Assembly (NCBI GenBank): GCA_002721545.1 | Contig: PBKR01000032.1 | Coordinates: forward strand, 1-64,000 | From: Nitrosomonadaceae bacterium | Lineage (GTDB): Bacteria; Pseudomonadota; Gammaproteobacteria; Burkholderiales; Nitrosomonadaceae | DNA length: 64,000 nt | Reading direction: 5' to 3' | Shown here: positions 31,410 to 39,309 of the stretch, one piece after another | How positions within the stretch are numbered: position 1 is the first letter of the stretch | Layout: each line of letters begins with the position of its first letter | Position numbers and translations under genes: made by a program | The notes under the pieces: model-generated | Databases searched by the model: none | What the model saw: only the letters and a program-made list of their open reading frames with translations | What the model was told of the DNA's origin: nothing

Positions 31410-32273
31410 CTAAACAGTACAAGAACCTTCTATACCACTCAAAGCACAATCCTCTTGTCTATCCCATAAAAAATCTTTGATTTGTTGGAAGCAGTTAAAT
31501 AATTGCTCACCTCCATTCCCTAATACCCTTAATACAAAACCATTTTCCGCCATTTCAGAAATCCCAAAAGAAATATCCCTCTCATTTTTAAGAGATTCTA
31601 AAATCACCTCTATTTTTTCTGTTAATTGATAAACACCATTTATATTTTTAGTATTCATATATATAAATGTAGCTTGGTGAGTATATTCTTCTAACTGTAT
31701 AACTGTATTCACCGATTTTATTCTAGGCTCAAGTATGATTTTGTCTTTTAGAACTAATAAATCTTTAAAGTATATCTCTGTTACATTTTGGAAATAAGTG
31801 AACCGAAATATCTCTCCTAAAATTTTCTTTCTAGGGTATATATACTCAGAGTTTTTTCTACCACAAGTTATAATTTCACTTAAAATTAATTCGCAGTCCT
31901 TTTCGAGATTAATAATAGTCTGATTTCTAAATATGGAATTTTCCTGCGGGACAACTGGATGAGGAACATAACAAAAAGAACTATTAGGAGCAAGCGTAAC
32001 TTGCGTGATTTGAGAAGAACCTTGCTTCATATTATACAAACGCTGGTATGATTGTGTCTGTAATTGAAATCGACTATTTTCCTCAATATTAATTTCTATC
32101 TTATGATTATCCGAATCTAATAAGCCAGGAGATGAGCTTCCAAGCATCATATATAAGCAGCCATCATCTTTAACCTGTCCAACATTCGTAATACGGAAAG
32201 GAACGCTAACATAACTGTCTATTAGATAAGACTTCCCCTCTTTAAATCCTGTTTTAATATTTAAATTGGCCAT
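31410..32273 (-). CDS. ureD: Urease accessory protein UreD (UreH), orphan copy
   Basis: UreD binds apo-urease with UreF and UreG during nickel insertion. At 287 aa it has the family length. The segment FQLQTQSYQRLYNMKQG (about 68-84) matches the conserved LTTQ...KVY region, followed by FCYVPHPVVPQENSIF, SEIITCGRK and FVLRVLGNGGEQLF. These variants resemble, from memory, the Bacteroidota type of UreD rather than the usual betaproteobacterial LEWLPQE form. A charged stretch of roughly 10 residues after the CGRK motif looks inserted. No ureABC or ureEFG is nearby. Function depends on a urease elsewhere; a NicO-type transporter lies 13 kb away. Start ATG, weak ribosome site. Confidence 0.85.
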   Translation of the reverse strand: MANLNIKTGFKEGKSYLIDSYVSVPFRITNVGQVKDDGCLYMMLGSSSPGLLDSDNHKIEINIEENSRFQLQTQSYQRLYNMKQGSSQITQVTLAPNSSFCYVPHPVVPQENSIFRNQTIINLEKDCELILSEIITCGRKNSEYIYPRKKILGEIFRFTYFQNVTEIYFKDLLVLKDKIILEPRIKSVNTVIQLEEYTHQATFIYMNTKNINGVYQLTEKIEVILESLKNERDISFGISEMAENGFVLRVLGNGGEQLFNCFQQIKDFLWDRQEDCALSGIEGSCTV

Positions 32274-35097: not shown

Positions 35098-36282
35098 TTA
35101 AGAAATATTTTTCTGTAATTCAGAAAAAGTATTTACAACATAATCTATCTGTTCCTCAGTATGCGCTGCACTAACACTACACCGAACCAATGATTTACCA
35201 TCAGGAGCAGCAGGAGGCAGAATCAAATTAACATAAATACCATGCTCATATAAAGATTTCCAAAGCATTATCGCATGTTGAGGGCTATCTAATATTGTTG
35301 CCACTATTGGACTAGGCTCTGGCCCAAGCTGATAGCCTTGGCTCTCTAATCCCGAATAAAGCTGATGTGCATTTTTCCAAAGACTATTACGTAATTCTGT
35401 ACCATCCCTCAATAATTTTAGTGCGGCTCTTGTAGATGCAATAGTAGAAGGTGAAGGTGATGCCGTAAAAATATAGGGGCGGCTAACATATCTCAATAAA
35501 TCAAGCTGTACATGATTACTAACGCAATAACCTCCTATACTACCAAGGCTCTTGCTAAAAGTTCCAGTAATAAAATCAACTTCACTTATAAGTCCTGTCT
35601 CCTCCACAAGACCCTGCCCAGTTTTACCTAAGACTCCAATAGAGTGTGCTTCATCAAGAAGCAGGATACTACCGTAAGAATTCTTTATGCTAACAATATC
35701 TGCAAGAGGAGCACGATCACCTAACATGCTATAAATACCTTCAATTACAATCAAAGTGGAACTTGATTTTTCACCTAAACGTTTAAGCCGTTTTTCCATG
35801 TCTACTACATCATTATGCCGAAACCTAATGATTTCAGCACCACTCAAACGACAACCATCATAAATACTAGCATGAGAGTCCCCATCAATAAGAATGACAT
35901 CATTTGCACCAGCTAAGCCAGAGATCATTGCTAGATTTGCTTGATAACCAGTTGTAAAAACTATGCTAGATTGACAGTTATAAAATTCAGAGAACTCCTG
36001 CTCAAGAGCACGATGTCCGCTATAGCTTCCATTTGCCATACGCGAGCCAGTTGTACCAGTACCTTCTTGATCTATCGCTTTATGTGCAGCCTCTAAACAT
36101 TCTGGTGAAAAAGTTAACCCTAAATAATTATTCGTACCAAAAAATAAAATACGACGACCACCTACATTTGCTTCAGTTGTGGAATATACCTCTTCTATAG
36201 GCATACCAAATATATCAAGTTCTTCTGGTAATAAATCCTTTCTAGCTACAGCAACTGCATCTAACTTATCTAATAAACTCAT
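35098..36282 (-). CDS. spt: Serine palmitoyltransferase-like alpha-oxoamine synthase
   Basis: PLP enzyme expected to condense L-serine with an acyl thioester to 3-ketosphinganine, the first step of sphingolipid synthesis. At 394 aa, fold type I: PLP-stacking His in GDSHASI (H137), DEAHSIG (210-216), Schiff-base Lys in GTFSKSLGSIGGY (K244). RPYIFTAS and NLILPPAAPDG followed by RCSVSAAHT resemble bacterial serine palmitoyltransferase more than KBL or BioF. Its ATG overlaps the ACP stop codon (ATGA), so the pair is translationally coupled. It is the last gene of the operon acyl ligase - reductase - ACP - SPT. Alternative: another ACP-dependent alpha-oxoamine synthase. Confidence 0.85.
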   Translation of the reverse strand: MSLLDKLDAVAVARKDLLPEELDIFGMPIEEVYSTTEANVGGRRILFFGTNNYLGLTFSPECLEAAHKAIDQEGTGTTGSRMANGSYSGHRALEQEFSEFYNCQSSIVFTTGYQANLAMISGLAGANDVILIDGDSHASIYDGCRLSGAEIIRFRHNDVVDMEKRLKRLGEKSSSTLIVIEGIYSMLGDRAPLADIVSIKNSYGSILLLDEAHSIGVLGKTGQGLVEETGLISEVDFITGTFSKSLGSIGGYCVSNHVQLDLLRYVSRPYIFTASPSPSTIASTRAALKLLRDGTELRNSLWKNAHQLYSGLESQGYQLGPEPSPIVATILDSPQHAIMLWKSLYEHGIYVNLILPPAAPDGKSLVRCSVSAAHTEEQIDYVVNTFSELQKNIS

Positions 36283-36527
36283 TGTGATTTAATCTTAAAA
36301 ATTAAATTTGCTAAATCCCGAACAGTATGTACATCTGCCAGAACATTTATTGGTACTGAAATATCAAACTCATCTTCAATTTCCATAATTAAATTTAATA
36401 ATTTAACAGAATCTATCGCTAACTCATTAATAAGATCAGTGTCTGGTGTAATCTCTATCTCTGAACTAACAAAACTCTCAAGATGTTTACAAAGATTCTG
36501 CAAAATACTATTCTGATCATATTCCAT
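36279..36527 (-). CDS. Dedicated acyl carrier protein of the sphingolipid-type operon
   Basis: An 82-aa acidic four-helix carrier protein. The phosphopantetheine attachment site is S40 in the motif IDSVKLL, where housekeeping AcpP has DSLDTV. The sequence MEIEDEFDISVPINVLADVHTVRDLANLI is typical of helices II-IV. It lies between the reductase (33 nt upstream) and the SPT (4-nt overlap). It probably receives a fatty acyl group from the AMP ligase of the same operon and offers it to the SPT. Not the fatty-acid-synthesis ACP, which usually sits with fabD-fabG. Confidence 0.88.
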   Translation of the reverse strand: MEYDQNSILQNLCKHLESFVSSEIEITPDTDLINELAIDSVKLLNLIMEIEDEFDISVPINVLADVHTVRDLANLIFKIKSQ

Positions 36528-36560
36528 TATTCAAACTCTTAAAATTAATGTTTATAAATA

Positions 36561-37475
36561 TTAAATAGCTTTCATTAAAGCATCACGTAAACGTACACCT
36601 GGCTGCCAATTAGGTAATACTTGAGCCAATGGTGAAATATCACATACCCAATCTGGGTGTCTTATCTCACGTACTTTCCCAGGAGTTAACATTGGTGAAT
36701 ACTGCAAAATACCAGCTAACCAAAGATTAATTTCTGCAAATAATGAAACTAACGTTACTGGTATAAAAAAGCAACGTACTGGCCGCTTCCAAACATCCTG
36801 TGCTATTGAGGCCAAGGAGTAACAGCTATATCCCCCATGTGTTCCATCATCAATCTCATATACACCCTTTATATGCTCATTTGTTATAAGCCAGCACAAC
36901 ATTGCCGATACTAGATCACTAACATGTATAAGACTATAGCGTGCGGTTTTTTTTCCTACCATAGGTAAAACTCCATACCGAGTTGCCCTAAGAAGCGGGC
37001 TAAGTTCTTTATCACCCGGACCATATACTGCAGTTGGCCTAAAAATAGTCCATGGCATAATACCAGAATTATCAGATACTATCTGCTCAGCTAAATACTT
37101 ACTTTTTGCGTACCAAGAAAGACTCGGCTCTCTAGCAGCTAAAGAAGAAACAAATAGGAACTTTGGTGGTGGAATTTGTTTTATAGATACATTTACAAGA
37201 TTATTTGTACCATCAACATTGTTATATGCAAACTCTTTAAAAGAACCACCTCGAACTACGCCCGCACAATGAATAACTGCGAAAACATTTTTTACAAGAC
37301 TCTGTAGCGCAACCTGGTTGCCCAGATCCCCCATTATCCATTCTATGTTTTCATTACTAACACGAGGGCTTCTTGTCAGTGCCCTAACTTTCCAGCCTTT
37401 TTTGATAAGTGATTGAACAAGTAATTGGCCAATAAATCCAGTAGCACCAGTTACAGCCACCGTTAATTCTGGCAT
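36561..37475 (-). CDS. cerR: NAD-dependent epimerase/dehydratase, ceramide-reductase (CerR) type
   Basis: Extended short-chain dehydrogenase. The frame is open to 37556, but the ATG at 37475 begins exactly at MPELTVAVTGATGFIG and lies 7 nt after the ligase stop codon, so I take it as the start (304 aa); no clear Shine-Dalgarno, so coupling is likely. The dinucleotide loop TGATGFIG is at about 9-16, Ser in FVSSLAA, YxxxK at Y122/K126, and FRPTAVYGPGD at about 145. TPGKVREIRHPDW is near the C terminus. By position beside SPT, ACP and an acyl ligase it matches the reductase of bacterial ceramide synthesis, which reduces the 3-keto group. Family is certain, substrate inferred. Confidence 0.8.
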   Translation of the reverse strand: MPELTVAVTGATGFIGQLLVQSLIKKGWKVRALTRSPRVSNENIEWIMGDLGNQVALQSLVKNVFAVIHCAGVVRGGSFKEFAYNNVDGTNNLVNVSIKQIPPPKFLFVSSLAAREPSLSWYAKSKYLAEQIVSDNSGIMPWTIFRPTAVYGPGDKELSPLLRATRYGVLPMVGKKTARYSLIHVSDLVSAMLCWLITNEHIKGVYEIDDGTHGGYSCYSLASIAQDVWKRPVRCFFIPVTLVSLFAEINLWLAGILQYSPMLTPGKVREIRHPDWVCDISPLAQVLPNWQPGVRLRDALMKAI

Positions 37476-37482
37476 ATTGAAA

Positions 37483-39309
37483 TTATCTGTCTTTATACTC
37501 GACTGATATTGGGGCTGCAAAATCTGCTCTTTGTATAAAACCTTTGCGTGCTGCATGACGTGAGAGCTTTCCAGATGAGGTGCGTGGTAAGGTGTGTGGA
37601 GGTACTAACTCTACTAAGCTTTTGACACCAAATGCCATATATACTAATTTTTGCAAGCGATTTACTAAAGACTGTCGATCTACTGATGAGGTCAAGCGGC
37701 ATTCAATAACTAATACAATTGATGTTATATCATTACTATCAGTTATGCTAAATGCAGATGCTTCTCGGGCCCTTATTTCTGGCTGCTGCTCTGCAAGTTC
37801 TTCTACATCCTGAGCGCGAATGTTACGTCCATTAACTATAATTACATCTGTACGACGTCCAGTAATATATAGATTACCCTCAAATAAAAATCCAAGATCT
37901 CCTGTATCAAGCCAATTATCTGGTTTTAAAGTTTTTTCGGTATCATCTGGACAATGAAAGTAACCTGTCATAATACTGGGCCCACGCATTAAAACACTAC
38001 CTACCCTTAAATCAGGTAATTCTCTTTCAGAATCATCTATTACCTTAATCATATGACCCGGCAATGGACTACCACAATTTACAAATTCGTTATATTTCCT
38101 ACCATCCGCCTGCACTCTTACCGCAATTCTCTTATCTATTAAAGTACCGGCATCAACTTTAATGCTTTGGAATCCTTTACCAGTATGAGAAAACGTTACT
38201 GCCAAGGTTGATTCTGCGAGCCCATAGCATGGTAAAAACGAGTCTATGCTAAAACCAGCTGGTGCAAATTTCTCTGCAAACTTCCTTAGGATATCTGGCC
38301 GTATCATTTCAGCACCTACACCTGCTACCCGCCAACAACTAAGATCAAGTTTTTCCAAATCAGAACTACGAACCCTTAAAGTACACAGCTTAAGGCCAAA
38401 GGGCTGACTAAATGCAACGGTACAACGGTTACGGCTTATCAATTTTAACCATTGTAATGGTCGTATTGCAAAATCTCTGGTAGCCAAGTAATCTACAGAA
38501 ACTTGTGCAACCATTGGCGCCATTAACATACCGACTAAGCCCATATCATGATAAAAAGGCAACCAAGATGCCGCACGATCATCAGAATTTATTTCTAAAC
38601 CACTACGAACTATACCCTTAAGATTACTCATTAATGCACGTTCTGTAATAATTACACCTCGCGGAGCACGTGTACTACCTGAGGTGTACTGCAAATAGGC
38701 GGTTTCACTTTGCTGATTTCGTTGTAGTGTTTTATCTGGAGAAGGTAACTCTGTCAGCTGTTCAGGTGTTCCAACCCATCGCAATGCTTGCAAACCCTCT
38801 GCAGCCTCTATTAGAAAATTAATGTAGTCTTCATTGGCTAATGCAGCACTTGCCTGACTACCTTCAAGAATACCACGAAGCTGCTGAACATAAACTGCAT
38901 GACTACCTAGATTAACCGGAACTGGCATTGCAAAAGGAATTAATCCTGCATAACGACATGCGAAAAATAATTCGATAAACTCTGGTGTTGTATCAGCAAT
39001 AATTGCAACACGTTCACCACTCGTCAAGCCAAGACCTAATAAACGTTTAGCTGAGACACGTGCCTTCTTTCTTAATACATTATAAGAAAGAACCGAACGT
39101 AAATTCCCTTTCGCATCATAAAAATTGTATCCAGTCGTGCCACTGGCAGCAAAGTCCAACGCTTCAGTTAGAGTATCAAAATCTGCTAATCTTTGAGTTT
39201 GTGAATTCTTTGTTGGTGTTGGCTTGATCGCCATTTTTTGCTTATCAGATGACTTGGAATCCAATACTTGCGTTGAGACTACGGTTAAATCTGCAATTTT
39301 TGAATTCAA
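37483..39309 (-). CDS. Fatty acyl-AMP ligase / acyl-ACP synthetase
   Basis: ANL-superfamily enzyme that adenylates a fatty acid and, given the next genes, probably loads it on the operon's ACP. About 608 aa. The P-loop-like YTSGSTRAPRG is at about 208-218; SWLPFYHDMGLVG, PCYGLAEST and WLDTGDLGFL follow, and the catalytic C-terminal Lys is in PRTSSGKLSR (about 581). The HDMGL pattern is typical of the fatty acyl-AMP ligase branch. The frame opens with TTG at 39336; I prefer the TTG at 39309, which has GGAG 9 nt upstream. An ATG at 39234, lacking a ribosome site, is the other candidate. First gene of the operon, preceded by a long AT-rich spacer. Confidence 0.85.
   Translation of the reverse strand: MNSKIADLTVVSTQVLDSKSSDKQKMAIKPTPTKNSQTQRLADFDTLTEALDFAASGTTGYNFYDAKGNLRSVLSYNVLRKKARVSAKRLLGLGLTSGERVAIIADTTPEFIELFFACRYAGLIPFAMPVPVNLGSHAVYVQQLRGILEGSQASAALANEDYINFLIEAAEGLQALRWVGTPEQLTELPSPDKTLQRNQQSETAYLQYTSGSTRAPRGVIITERALMSNLKGIVRSGLEINSDDRAASWLPFYHDMGLVGMLMAPMVAQVSVDYLATRDFAIRPLQWLKLISRNRCTVAFSQPFGLKLCTLRVRSSDLEKLDLSCWRVAGVGAEMIRPDILRKFAEKFAPAGFSIDSFLPCYGLAESTLAVTFSHTGKGFQSIKVDAGTLIDKRIAVRVQADGRKYNEFVNCGSPLPGHMIKVIDDSERELPDLRVGSVLMRGPSIMTGYFHCPDDTEKTLKPDNWLDTGDLGFLFEGNLYITGRRTDVIIVNGRNIRAQDVEELAEQQPEIRAREASAFSITDSNDITSIVLVIECRLTSSVDRQSLVNRLQKLVYMAFGVKSLVELVPPHTLPRTSSGKLSRHAARKGFIQRADFAAPISVEYKDR

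What the first reader, a model, noticed from the sequence alone, without database searches (positions are those of the whole stretch)
35098..39309. Four-gene operon with the core bacterial sphingolipid (ceramide) gene set in a probable Nitrosomonadaceae chromosome
Seen: acyl-AMP ligase, SDR-type reductase, stand-alone ACP (Ser in DSVK) and a serine-palmitoyltransferase-like PLP enzyme in one tight minus-strand operon (7 nt, 33 nt and a 4-nt ATGA overlap). Known: in Caulobacter crescentus spt, acp, cerR and an acyl-ACP synthetase are neighbours and are required for ceramide synthesis. The set and order match as I recall them. Inference: this bacterium makes a sphingoid base from an ACP-bound acyl group. 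Sphingolipids are not an expected trait of ammonia-oxidising betaproteobacteria. The ceramide N-acyltransferase (bCerS) is not in the window, so the end product may be a free long-chain base or may need genes elsewhere.
Basis: partly seen in the sequence, partly recalled or inferred. Interest (0 to 1): 0.8.

Follow-up and report, generated by a model that had tools for sequence, protein, structure and literature searches.

The report
Sphingolipid operon in endotoxin-free ammonia oxidisers
The four genes make the backbone of a sphingolipid, as already proposed for a related nitrifying bacterium; new here is that nearly all genomes checked from this bacterial family carry the pathway, lack a gene needed to make ordinary endotoxin, and seem to have kept only the sphingolipid-type version of the endotoxin exporter.

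Summary
The operon is real: aasR, cerR, acpR, spt, minus strand, spacings as stated. The PLP enzyme is serine palmitoyltransferase (NF047599, 604.8 bits, cut-off 500) and groups with SPTs, not KBL or BioF. The same operon is in print for Nitrosomonas eutropha (PMC9386255), so alone it is a new member of a known kind. The missing ceramide synthase lies about 61 kb away on the same contig, beside a lipid kinase, a Tam41-fold CDP-lipid synthase, a CDP-alcohol transferase and LptF/LptG. Lipid A gene loss in two members was published in 2010 without this link (PMC3087551). Best reading: LPS was replaced by a phosphosphingolipid exported by a re-purposed Lpt machine. No lipid was measured; other lpx genes were not searched family-wide.

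The parts
35098..36282 (-). spt, serine palmitoyltransferase
   Evidence: NF047599 604.8 bits (cut-off 500); 2x8u 419 bits; tree
36279..36527 (-). acpR, dedicated acyl carrier protein (Ser of IDSVK)
   Evidence: PF00550 46.9 bits; 51% over 53 aa to the E. coli cluster ACP
36561..37475 (-). cerR, SDR-type 3-oxo-ceramide/3-oxo-sphinganine reductase (an upstream start at 37556 is possible)
   Evidence: PF01370 96.8 bits; 42% over 301 aa to the E. coli cluster epimerase
37483..39309 (-). aasR, fatty acyl-AMP ligase / acyl-AcpR synthetase (start 39309 TTG or 39234 ATG)
   Evidence: NF006624 849.3 bits (cut-off 600); 45% over 570 aa to E. coli
26904..29516 (-). LptD-type outer-membrane translocon, kept although LpxC was not found
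   Evidence: PF04453 324.6 bits

Best explanation
AasR activates a fatty acid as acyl-AMP and loads it on AcpR. SPT condenses acyl-AcpR with serine to 3-oxo-sphinganine. bCerS, encoded about 61 kb away on the same contig, adds the amide acyl chain, and CerR reduces the ketone to give dihydroceramide. Genes beside bCerS then phosphorylate ceramide (lipid kinase), probably activate it as CDP-ceramide (Tam41-fold enzyme) and attach a glycerate-type head group (CDP-alcohol transferase), giving a ceramide phosphoglycerate. The family lacks LpxC and, in the genomes checked, has only the sphingolipid-type LptFG pair, so this anionic lipid most likely stands in for LPS in the outer leaflet and is carried there by LptF2G2 and LptD. 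Shown here: gene content, families, order, trees and distribution. Inferred: every enzymatic step in this organism, the head group, transport by Lpt, and absence of LPS as a molecule. My confidence is about 0.95 for sphingoid base and ceramide synthesis, about 0.8 for a ceramide phosphoglycerate-type product, and about 0.6 for the LPS stand-in exported by Lpt.
For: SPT, ligase, ACP and reductase families. bCerS 48% identical to E. coli YghO. Second cluster conserved in the 17 relatives' LptFG neighbourhoods that I fetched. p333: PF09139 Tam41 in 11 of 12 aligned members at the lax limit of E 10, best 8.3e-9; PDB 6ig2, E 4.4e-5; a model of the Nitrosomonas sp. Nm51 homologue matches Tam41 at Foldseek E 4.9e-9 and Z 16.7 over 227 residues, next unrelated entry 9.6. 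SPT over cut-off 119 of 125, CerS 120 of 125, LpxC 0 of 125. One LptFG pair in the own genome and exactly two matches in 111 of 125; of sphingolipid type in the trees. N. europaea has only lpxK and N. multiformis only lpxA of nine lipid A genes (PMC3087551 section 14).
Against: No lipid data. Only LpxC of the lipid A genes was searched family-wide. The half of the own genome that I read holds no ftsZ, bamA or rpoN landmark, so the usual lpx neighbourhoods were not seen. A KdsB-like cytidylyltransferase and an MsbA-like flippase (459.6 bits, below the cut-off of 602) are still encoded, though they may serve capsule or sphingolipid. LptA and LptC gave no hit in that half, LptE was not queried, and no LptB was singled out. 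The trees hold 18 genomes of the family from three of its four genera. cerS and LptFG lie on different contigs in some genomes (G027, G028, G054, G103). Orthology to Caulobacter CC_1152-CC_1161 rests on domains and on a published statement for N. eutropha; I aligned no Caulobacter protein.
Confidence: 0.7

Rival explanations
1. Sphingolipids are made, but LPS is made too, by divergent or unrecognised lipid A enzymes. The single LptFG pair then serves LPS, and its place beside ceramide genes is a leftover of the transferred cluster.
For: LptD, a KdsB-like and an MsbA-like protein are kept. lpxK was reported in N. europaea and lpxA in N. multiformis. NCBIfam scores the pair as LptF and LptG equivalogs, though the E. 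coli island pair scores likewise.
Against: LpxC 0 of 125 while the same search rings in E. coli and Caulobacter. In the genomes put in the trees the canonical pair of the order is gone and only the sphingolipid-type pair remains.
Confidence: 0.2
2. The pathway ends at ceramide or a free long-chain base with no phosphoglycerate head group. The kinase, Tam41-like and CDP-alcohol genes do something else.
For: None of these enzymes has been assayed in this family, and the Caulobacter steps after ceramide phosphate are themselves not settled (PMC11324152 Conclusions passage). The CDP-alcohol gene gave no hit in 3 of 17 family neighbourhoods and in five gammaproteobacterial spt loci that hold the kinase and p333 (L075, L077, L081, L086, L087).
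Against: bCerS and p333 are neighbours of LptFG in 17 of 17 family stretches, the kinase in 16 and the CDP-alcohol gene in 14, and most of the set lies next to spt in several gammaproteobacterial MAGs.
Confidence: 0.12
3. The operon makes another alpha-amino ketone (an autoinducer- or antibiotic-type product) rather than a sphingoid base.
For: Alpha-oxoamine synthases are a broad family; the protein also matches KBL, BioF, ALAS and quorum-sensing autoinducer synthase models below their cut-offs.
Against: Only an SPT model is passed, the tree places it with SPTs, and CerS co-occurs.
Confidence: 0.03

Closest known systems
aasR-epi-acpR-spt operon Neut_0458-0461 of Nitrosomonas eutropha C91 (PMC9386255, Figure 9 legend)
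   Same: Same four genes in the same order, in a Nitrosomonas; ceramide synthase gene elsewhere in the genome (Neut_1100).
   Different: No difference in kind was found. The section and passages I read do not mention LPS loss or the LptFG exchange.
Caulobacter crescentus ceramide and CPG/CPG2 cluster CC_1152-CC_1168 (PMC11324152, PMC9386255)
   Same: aasR, cerR, acpR, spt, cerS, kinase, nucleotidyltransferase and CDP-alcohol transferase genes, plus an LptF/LptG pair in the cluster.
   Different: There the cluster's LptF/LptG are described as second versions (LptF2, LptG2), and a Caulobacter control genome has LpxC. Here the genes are split over separate places of one contig, the cluster-type pair is the only pair, and LpxC is not found.
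E. coli B-type sphingolipid island (yghO, aasR, epi, acpR, spt, LptF/LptG-like; SCU-485)
   Same: Same four-gene order, CerS and an LptFG pair of the same clade.
   Different: E. coli also has a canonical LptFG pair (K-12 lptF/lptG; in SCU-485 itself this was not looked up).
LPS-free, sphingolipid-bearing sphingomonads (Sphingomonas koreensis, named in the PMC11324152 Introduction passage)
   Same: Sphingolipid with no LPS.
   Different: The product here is predicted to be a phosphosphingolipid rather than a glycosphingolipid (that sphingomonads make glycosphingolipids is recalled), and the lineage is betaproteobacterial.

Membership tests
Serine palmitoyltransferase (NF047599) | Score over the curated equivalog cut-off, and grouping with SPTs apart from KBL and BioF | tested here: met
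   604.8 vs 500 bits; all 21 SPT rows on one side of a 100/99 branch from E. coli KBL, E. coli BioF and an own-genome BioF-like protein. No ALAS (HemA) row was in the tree.
Serine palmitoyltransferase (NF047599) | Catalytic Lys, His and Asp | tested here: met
   K244, D210, H213 and H137 align with 2jg2 chain positions 265, 231, 234 and 159 in the alignment, by my count; that these are the catalytic residues of S. paucimobilis SPT is recalled.
Serine palmitoyltransferase (NF047599) | Forms 3-oxo-sphinganine from serine | not testable with these tools
   needs an enzyme assay
Rhodobacterial AasR-AcpR-SPT system | ligase and dedicated ACP gene next to spt, ACP immediately upstream | tested here: met
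Rhodobacterial AasR-AcpR-SPT system | AasR acylates AcpR and not CoA or housekeeping ACP | not testable with these tools
   shown for Caulobacter in PMC9386255 (abstract)
Bacterial ceramide pathway | bCerS in the genome | tested here: met
   C32:100605-101714, 48% to YghO, E 5.6e-120
Ceramide phosphoglycerate pathway | ceramide kinase (DAGK_cat), CDP-lipid synthase-like and CDP-alcohol transferase genes with cerS | tested here: met
   orthology to CC_1159-1161 by domain only
Ceramide phosphoglycerate pathway | CPG in membrane lipids | not testable with these tools
   needs mass spectrometry
Sphingolipid-cluster LptF2G2 | LptF and LptG fall in the clade of spt-cluster pairs, apart from the canonical pair of the order | tested here: met
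   100/100 in both trees; 100/99 for LptF; LptG joins four gammaproteobacterial cluster pairs at 100/99 while its wider place is open
LPS-producing Gram-negative with canonical lipid A pathway | LpxC | tested here: not met
   0 of 125 genomes, own included
LPS-producing Gram-negative with canonical lipid A pathway | LpxA, LpxB, LpxD, LpxK, WaaA | tested here: inconclusive
   no hit with E. coli queries in about 980 kb (48.6%) of the own genome (window, the rest), but no landmark genes there either; literature for two species
KBL / BioF / ALAS | Score over the curated cut-off | tested here: not met
   328.8 of 460, 337.6 of 426.45 and 243.9 of 338.55 bits

The most novel reading that the evidence does not exclude
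The betaproteobacterial ammonia-oxidiser family as a whole has an outer membrane without LPS, in which an imported ceramide-phosphoglycerate pathway took over. The Lpt bridge was re-purposed: the canonical LptFG was lost and the sphingolipid-cluster LptFG became the only pair, so Lpt here is a dedicated sphingolipid exporter.
Probability: 0.58. Interest if true: 0.82.

Novelty: new variant of a known kind. Interest (0 to 1): 0.62.

Why it matters
Bacterial ammonia oxidisers drive nitrification in soil and wastewater (recalled), and their outer-membrane chemistry is usually assumed to be ordinary. If the reading is right, the family is a natural LPS-free lineage whose Lpt genes have no LPS to carry. 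That makes an open question directly testable: how bacterial sphingolipids reach the outer membrane (stated as unknown in PMC11324152, Introduction passage). It also gives a functional reason for the lipid A gene loss that PMC3087551 put down to genome reduction.

Tried and rejected
Rejected: the PLP enzyme as KBL, BioF or ALAS. Rejected: the product as a free long-chain base for lack of CerS. Rejected: the LptFG pair as the canonical betaproteobacterial pair. The promoter and terminator scan gave no more sites than shuffles (24 vs mean 25.1; 3 vs 3.3). NCBIfam does not separate canonical from cluster-type LptFG.

Led nowhere: reading stretches of the own genome for the ftsZ-lpxC and bamA-lpxD neighbourhoods found neither landmark. 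The genome papers of N. europaea and N. multiformis are not held. Literature searches that bear on 'not in print'. In their listings I saw no paper that links LPS loss in this family to sphingolipids; subscription papers and preprints are not covered. Papers: PMC9386255 abstract/outline, section 13 and passages; PMC11324152 section 9 and passages; PMC3087551 section 14 and passages; PMC11087976 and PMC10331486 passages only; all others search listings only.

Rows dropped: duplicate loci (L017, L018, L139-L158) and proteins under 300 aa were left out. In one search two spurious LptG ORFs (L189_1530, L188_1377) were left out, every second order row was used, and 11 of the 18 family loci L119-L136 were used. 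The order's rows come from the 30 best-scoring loci. L131, an extra LptF of one genome, was kept. Proteins over 420 aa were cut to their last 420 residues.

Full report
1. Observation. The window is G000:C32:1-64000 of a 2.01 Mb, 37-contig assembly, 99.05% complete with 7.52% contamination. The four ORFs exist as described, with 4-nt overlap and 33-nt and 7-nt spacings. Only the aasR start is open (39309 TTG or 39234 ATG).

2. Identity of the four proteins. SPT: NF047599 604.8 bits against a cut-off of 500; KBL, BioF and ALAS models stay below theirs; the nearest solved structures are SPTs, 2x8u at 419 bits. Tree: 21 SPT rows against E. coli KBL, E. coli BioF and an own-genome BioF-like protein, branch 100/99. 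The eight family rows form one clade, and their sisters are two SPTs of gammaproteobacterial MAGs, L075 and L086. No ALAS row was available. The ligase passes the fatty acyl-AMP ligase model (849.3 of 600); the ACP and reductase match general models only. All four match the E. coli island proteins in order and at 42-55% identity.

3. What is in print. PMC9386255 lists aasR, epi, acpR and spt of N. eutropha C91 as Neut_0458, 0459, 0460 and 0461, with the N-acyltransferase as Neut_1100 (section 13). PMC11324152 predicts CPG and CPG2 in N. eutropha, with good orthologues of at least 13 of 17 Caulobacter cluster genes in three genome regions (section 9). The operon is therefore a new member of a published kind.

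4. The missing genes. bCerS lies at C32:100605-101714, 48% identical to YghO. Around it on the minus strand (L011, C32:86000-105900): a MobA-like nucleotidyltransferase, LptF, LptG, a CDP-alcohol phosphatidyltransferase, a DAGK_cat lipid kinase and a 333-aa protein (p333) with no Pfam match at E 0.001. p333 is a Tam41-type enzyme: the profile finds 6ig2 at E 4.4e-5; PF09139 appears in 11 of 12 members at the lax limit of E 10, best 8.3e-9, own member 0.0024 and 17.7 bits, below the Pfam cut-off of 24. The AlphaFold model of the Nitrosomonas sp. Nm51 homologue (mean pLDDT 78.1, six sequences) has Tam41 as its five best Foldseek hits, and Z 16.7 over 227 residues, rmsd 3.2, against 9.6 for the next unrelated entry. 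This supports a CDP-ceramide step, close to the idea for CC_1161 in PMC11324152 (passage). A nucleotidyltransferase of the sugar-phosphate type and a fatty acid desaturase-type protein lie at C32:83982-86484; they are candidates for CC_1152 and CC_0202 by description only.

5. Conservation of the second cluster. I took twenty 20-kb stretches from relatives; two of them are spt loci and one (L131) is an extra LptF copy. In the other 17 LptFG neighbourhoods, from 17 genomes of three genera, cerS and p333 are present in 17 of 17, the nucleotidyltransferase in 15, the kinase in 16 and the CDP-alcohol gene in 14 (my count; BLAST with a 45% length limit). These are chosen genomes: in G027, G028, G054 and G103 the coordinates put cerS and LptFG on different contigs. 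In several gammaproteobacterial MAGs most of the set lies next to spt in one stretch (L075, L076, L086; L077, L081 and L087 are cut at an end). No single locus shows every gene: the CDP-alcohol gene gave no hit in five of these six, and cerS none in L076. So the family seems to hold a split form of one cluster.

6. Distribution. SPT over cut-off in 119 of 125 genomes of the family. The six misses are G005, G016, G027, G038, G055 and G119 (completeness 66-91%; G016 has a fragment). CerS in 120 of 125 (misses G006, G016, G038, G055, G119). LptFG in 121 of 125 (misses G006, G038, G055, G119); exactly two matches in 111 of 125, three in eight, four in one, one in one, by my count. G038, G055 and G119 lack all three, which incompleteness may or may not explain. 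In an even draw of 399 genomes of the order, 16 match SPT at E 1e-140: 13 of this family and 3 of others; the controls that ring are E. coli and Caulobacter (family members without a match may be among the unlisted rows).

7. LPS. LpxC (PF03331): 0 of 125, with controls ringing in E. coli, Caulobacter, Synechococcus and Bacteroides. PMC3087551 reported only lpxK in N. europaea and only lpxA in N. multiformis and ascribed this to genome reduction (section 14); the word sphingolipid does not occur in its main text. LptD is in the window (PF04453 324.6 bits). An MsbA-like protein is kept but scores under its model cut-off (459.6 of 602), and a KdsB-like protein, 35% identical to E. coli KdsB, lies near the second cluster.

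8. Which LptFG? In 60 sampled genomes of the order 58 have LptFG, 56 of them exactly two matches (two of the 60 are of this family). Trees put LptF and LptG of the own genome and 17 relatives with pairs from spt clusters of gamma- and deltaproteobacterial and Nitrospirota MAGs and the E. coli island, apart from the order's canonical pair. LptF: 100/99. LptG: with four gammaproteobacterial cluster pairs at 100/99, wider place open. With second pairs added and fewer family rows: 100/100 for both LptF (27 rows) and LptG (25 rows). Some outer placements meet on long branches, as the program warns. The fourth genus of the family was not in the trees. Of 15 genomes outside the family that hold spt, 14 have four matches over cut-off (two pairs) and one (G525) has two. 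In the five gammaproteobacterial genomes nearest to the family (G511, G512, G514, G518, G524) one pair is of cluster type and the other is not; G525 has only a canonical-type pair, 61% identical to one of the order's. The family is thus unusual in keeping only the cluster-type pair.

9. Mechanism. Shown: gene content, order, families, trees, distribution. From published work on relatives: SPTs of Caulobacter, E. coli B and Sphingomonas wittichii prefer acyl-AcpR (PMC9386255 abstract), SPT and bCerS are cytoplasmic and CerR periplasmic in Caulobacter (PMC11087976 passages), and CpgB is a ceramide kinase (PMC10331486 passages). Inferred: each step here, the head group, export by LptF2G2 and LptD, and replacement of LPS.

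10. Against. No lipid was measured; only one lipid A gene was tested family-wide; LptA and LptC were not found in the half of the own genome read, and LptE was not queried; the own genome has no amoA match (3 of 8 in its genus have one), so ammonia oxidation by this strain is by kinship. The 7.5% contamination estimate is unlikely to touch this result, because both clusters are on the window's contig and recur across the family.

11. Verdict. Operon: real, correctly read, a new member of a published kind. Wider finding: a family-wide combination of sphingolipid genes, missing LpxC and, in the genomes checked, a cluster-type-only LptFG, which I did not find in the papers searched.

Noticed in passing
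G000 whole genome: No amoA (PF02461) match in the window's own assembly; 3 of 8 genomes of the genus have it. Either a gap of the assembly or a member that does not oxidise ammonia.
   Followed up: no
L009 5961-13742 (E. coli SCU-485): A yghO, aasR, epi, acpR, spt island with an LptF/LptG pair. A short stretch of aasR (8% of the query) has a match in 934 of 5,426 complete E. coli genomes, so many E. coli may carry sphingolipid genes.
   Followed up: partly
L011 531-4599 (C32:86530-90598): A KdsB-like cytidylyltransferase with an HpcH aldolase, a 2-hydroxyacid dehydrogenase, an epimerase and a HAD phosphatase, also beside the second cluster in 4 of the 17 stretches of relatives (L130, L133, L134, L135): perhaps a 3-deoxy sugar for a capsule in a lineage without LpxC.
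   Followed up: partly
L074 1-2864: In Nitrosomonas sp. Nm51 the CDP-alcohol (cut at the locus end), kinase and Tam41-like genes lie about 4 kb from the spt operon, a link between the two split parts.
   Followed up: no
L075, L072, L023, L055: MAG titles Klebsiella pneumoniae, Bacteroidetes, Moraxellaceae and Gammaproteobacteria sit on loci with spt 67-83% identical to the window; the names of some of these bins are doubtful.
   Followed up: no
G038, G055, G119: Three family genomes lack SPT (over cut-off), CerS and LptFG together, although the two clusters are separate loci.
   Followed up: no
G157, G162: Two genomes of the order, 98-99% complete, have no LptF/LptG match at all.
   Followed up: no
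window 31410-32273: A UreD urease accessory protein gene near the operon.
   Followed up: no
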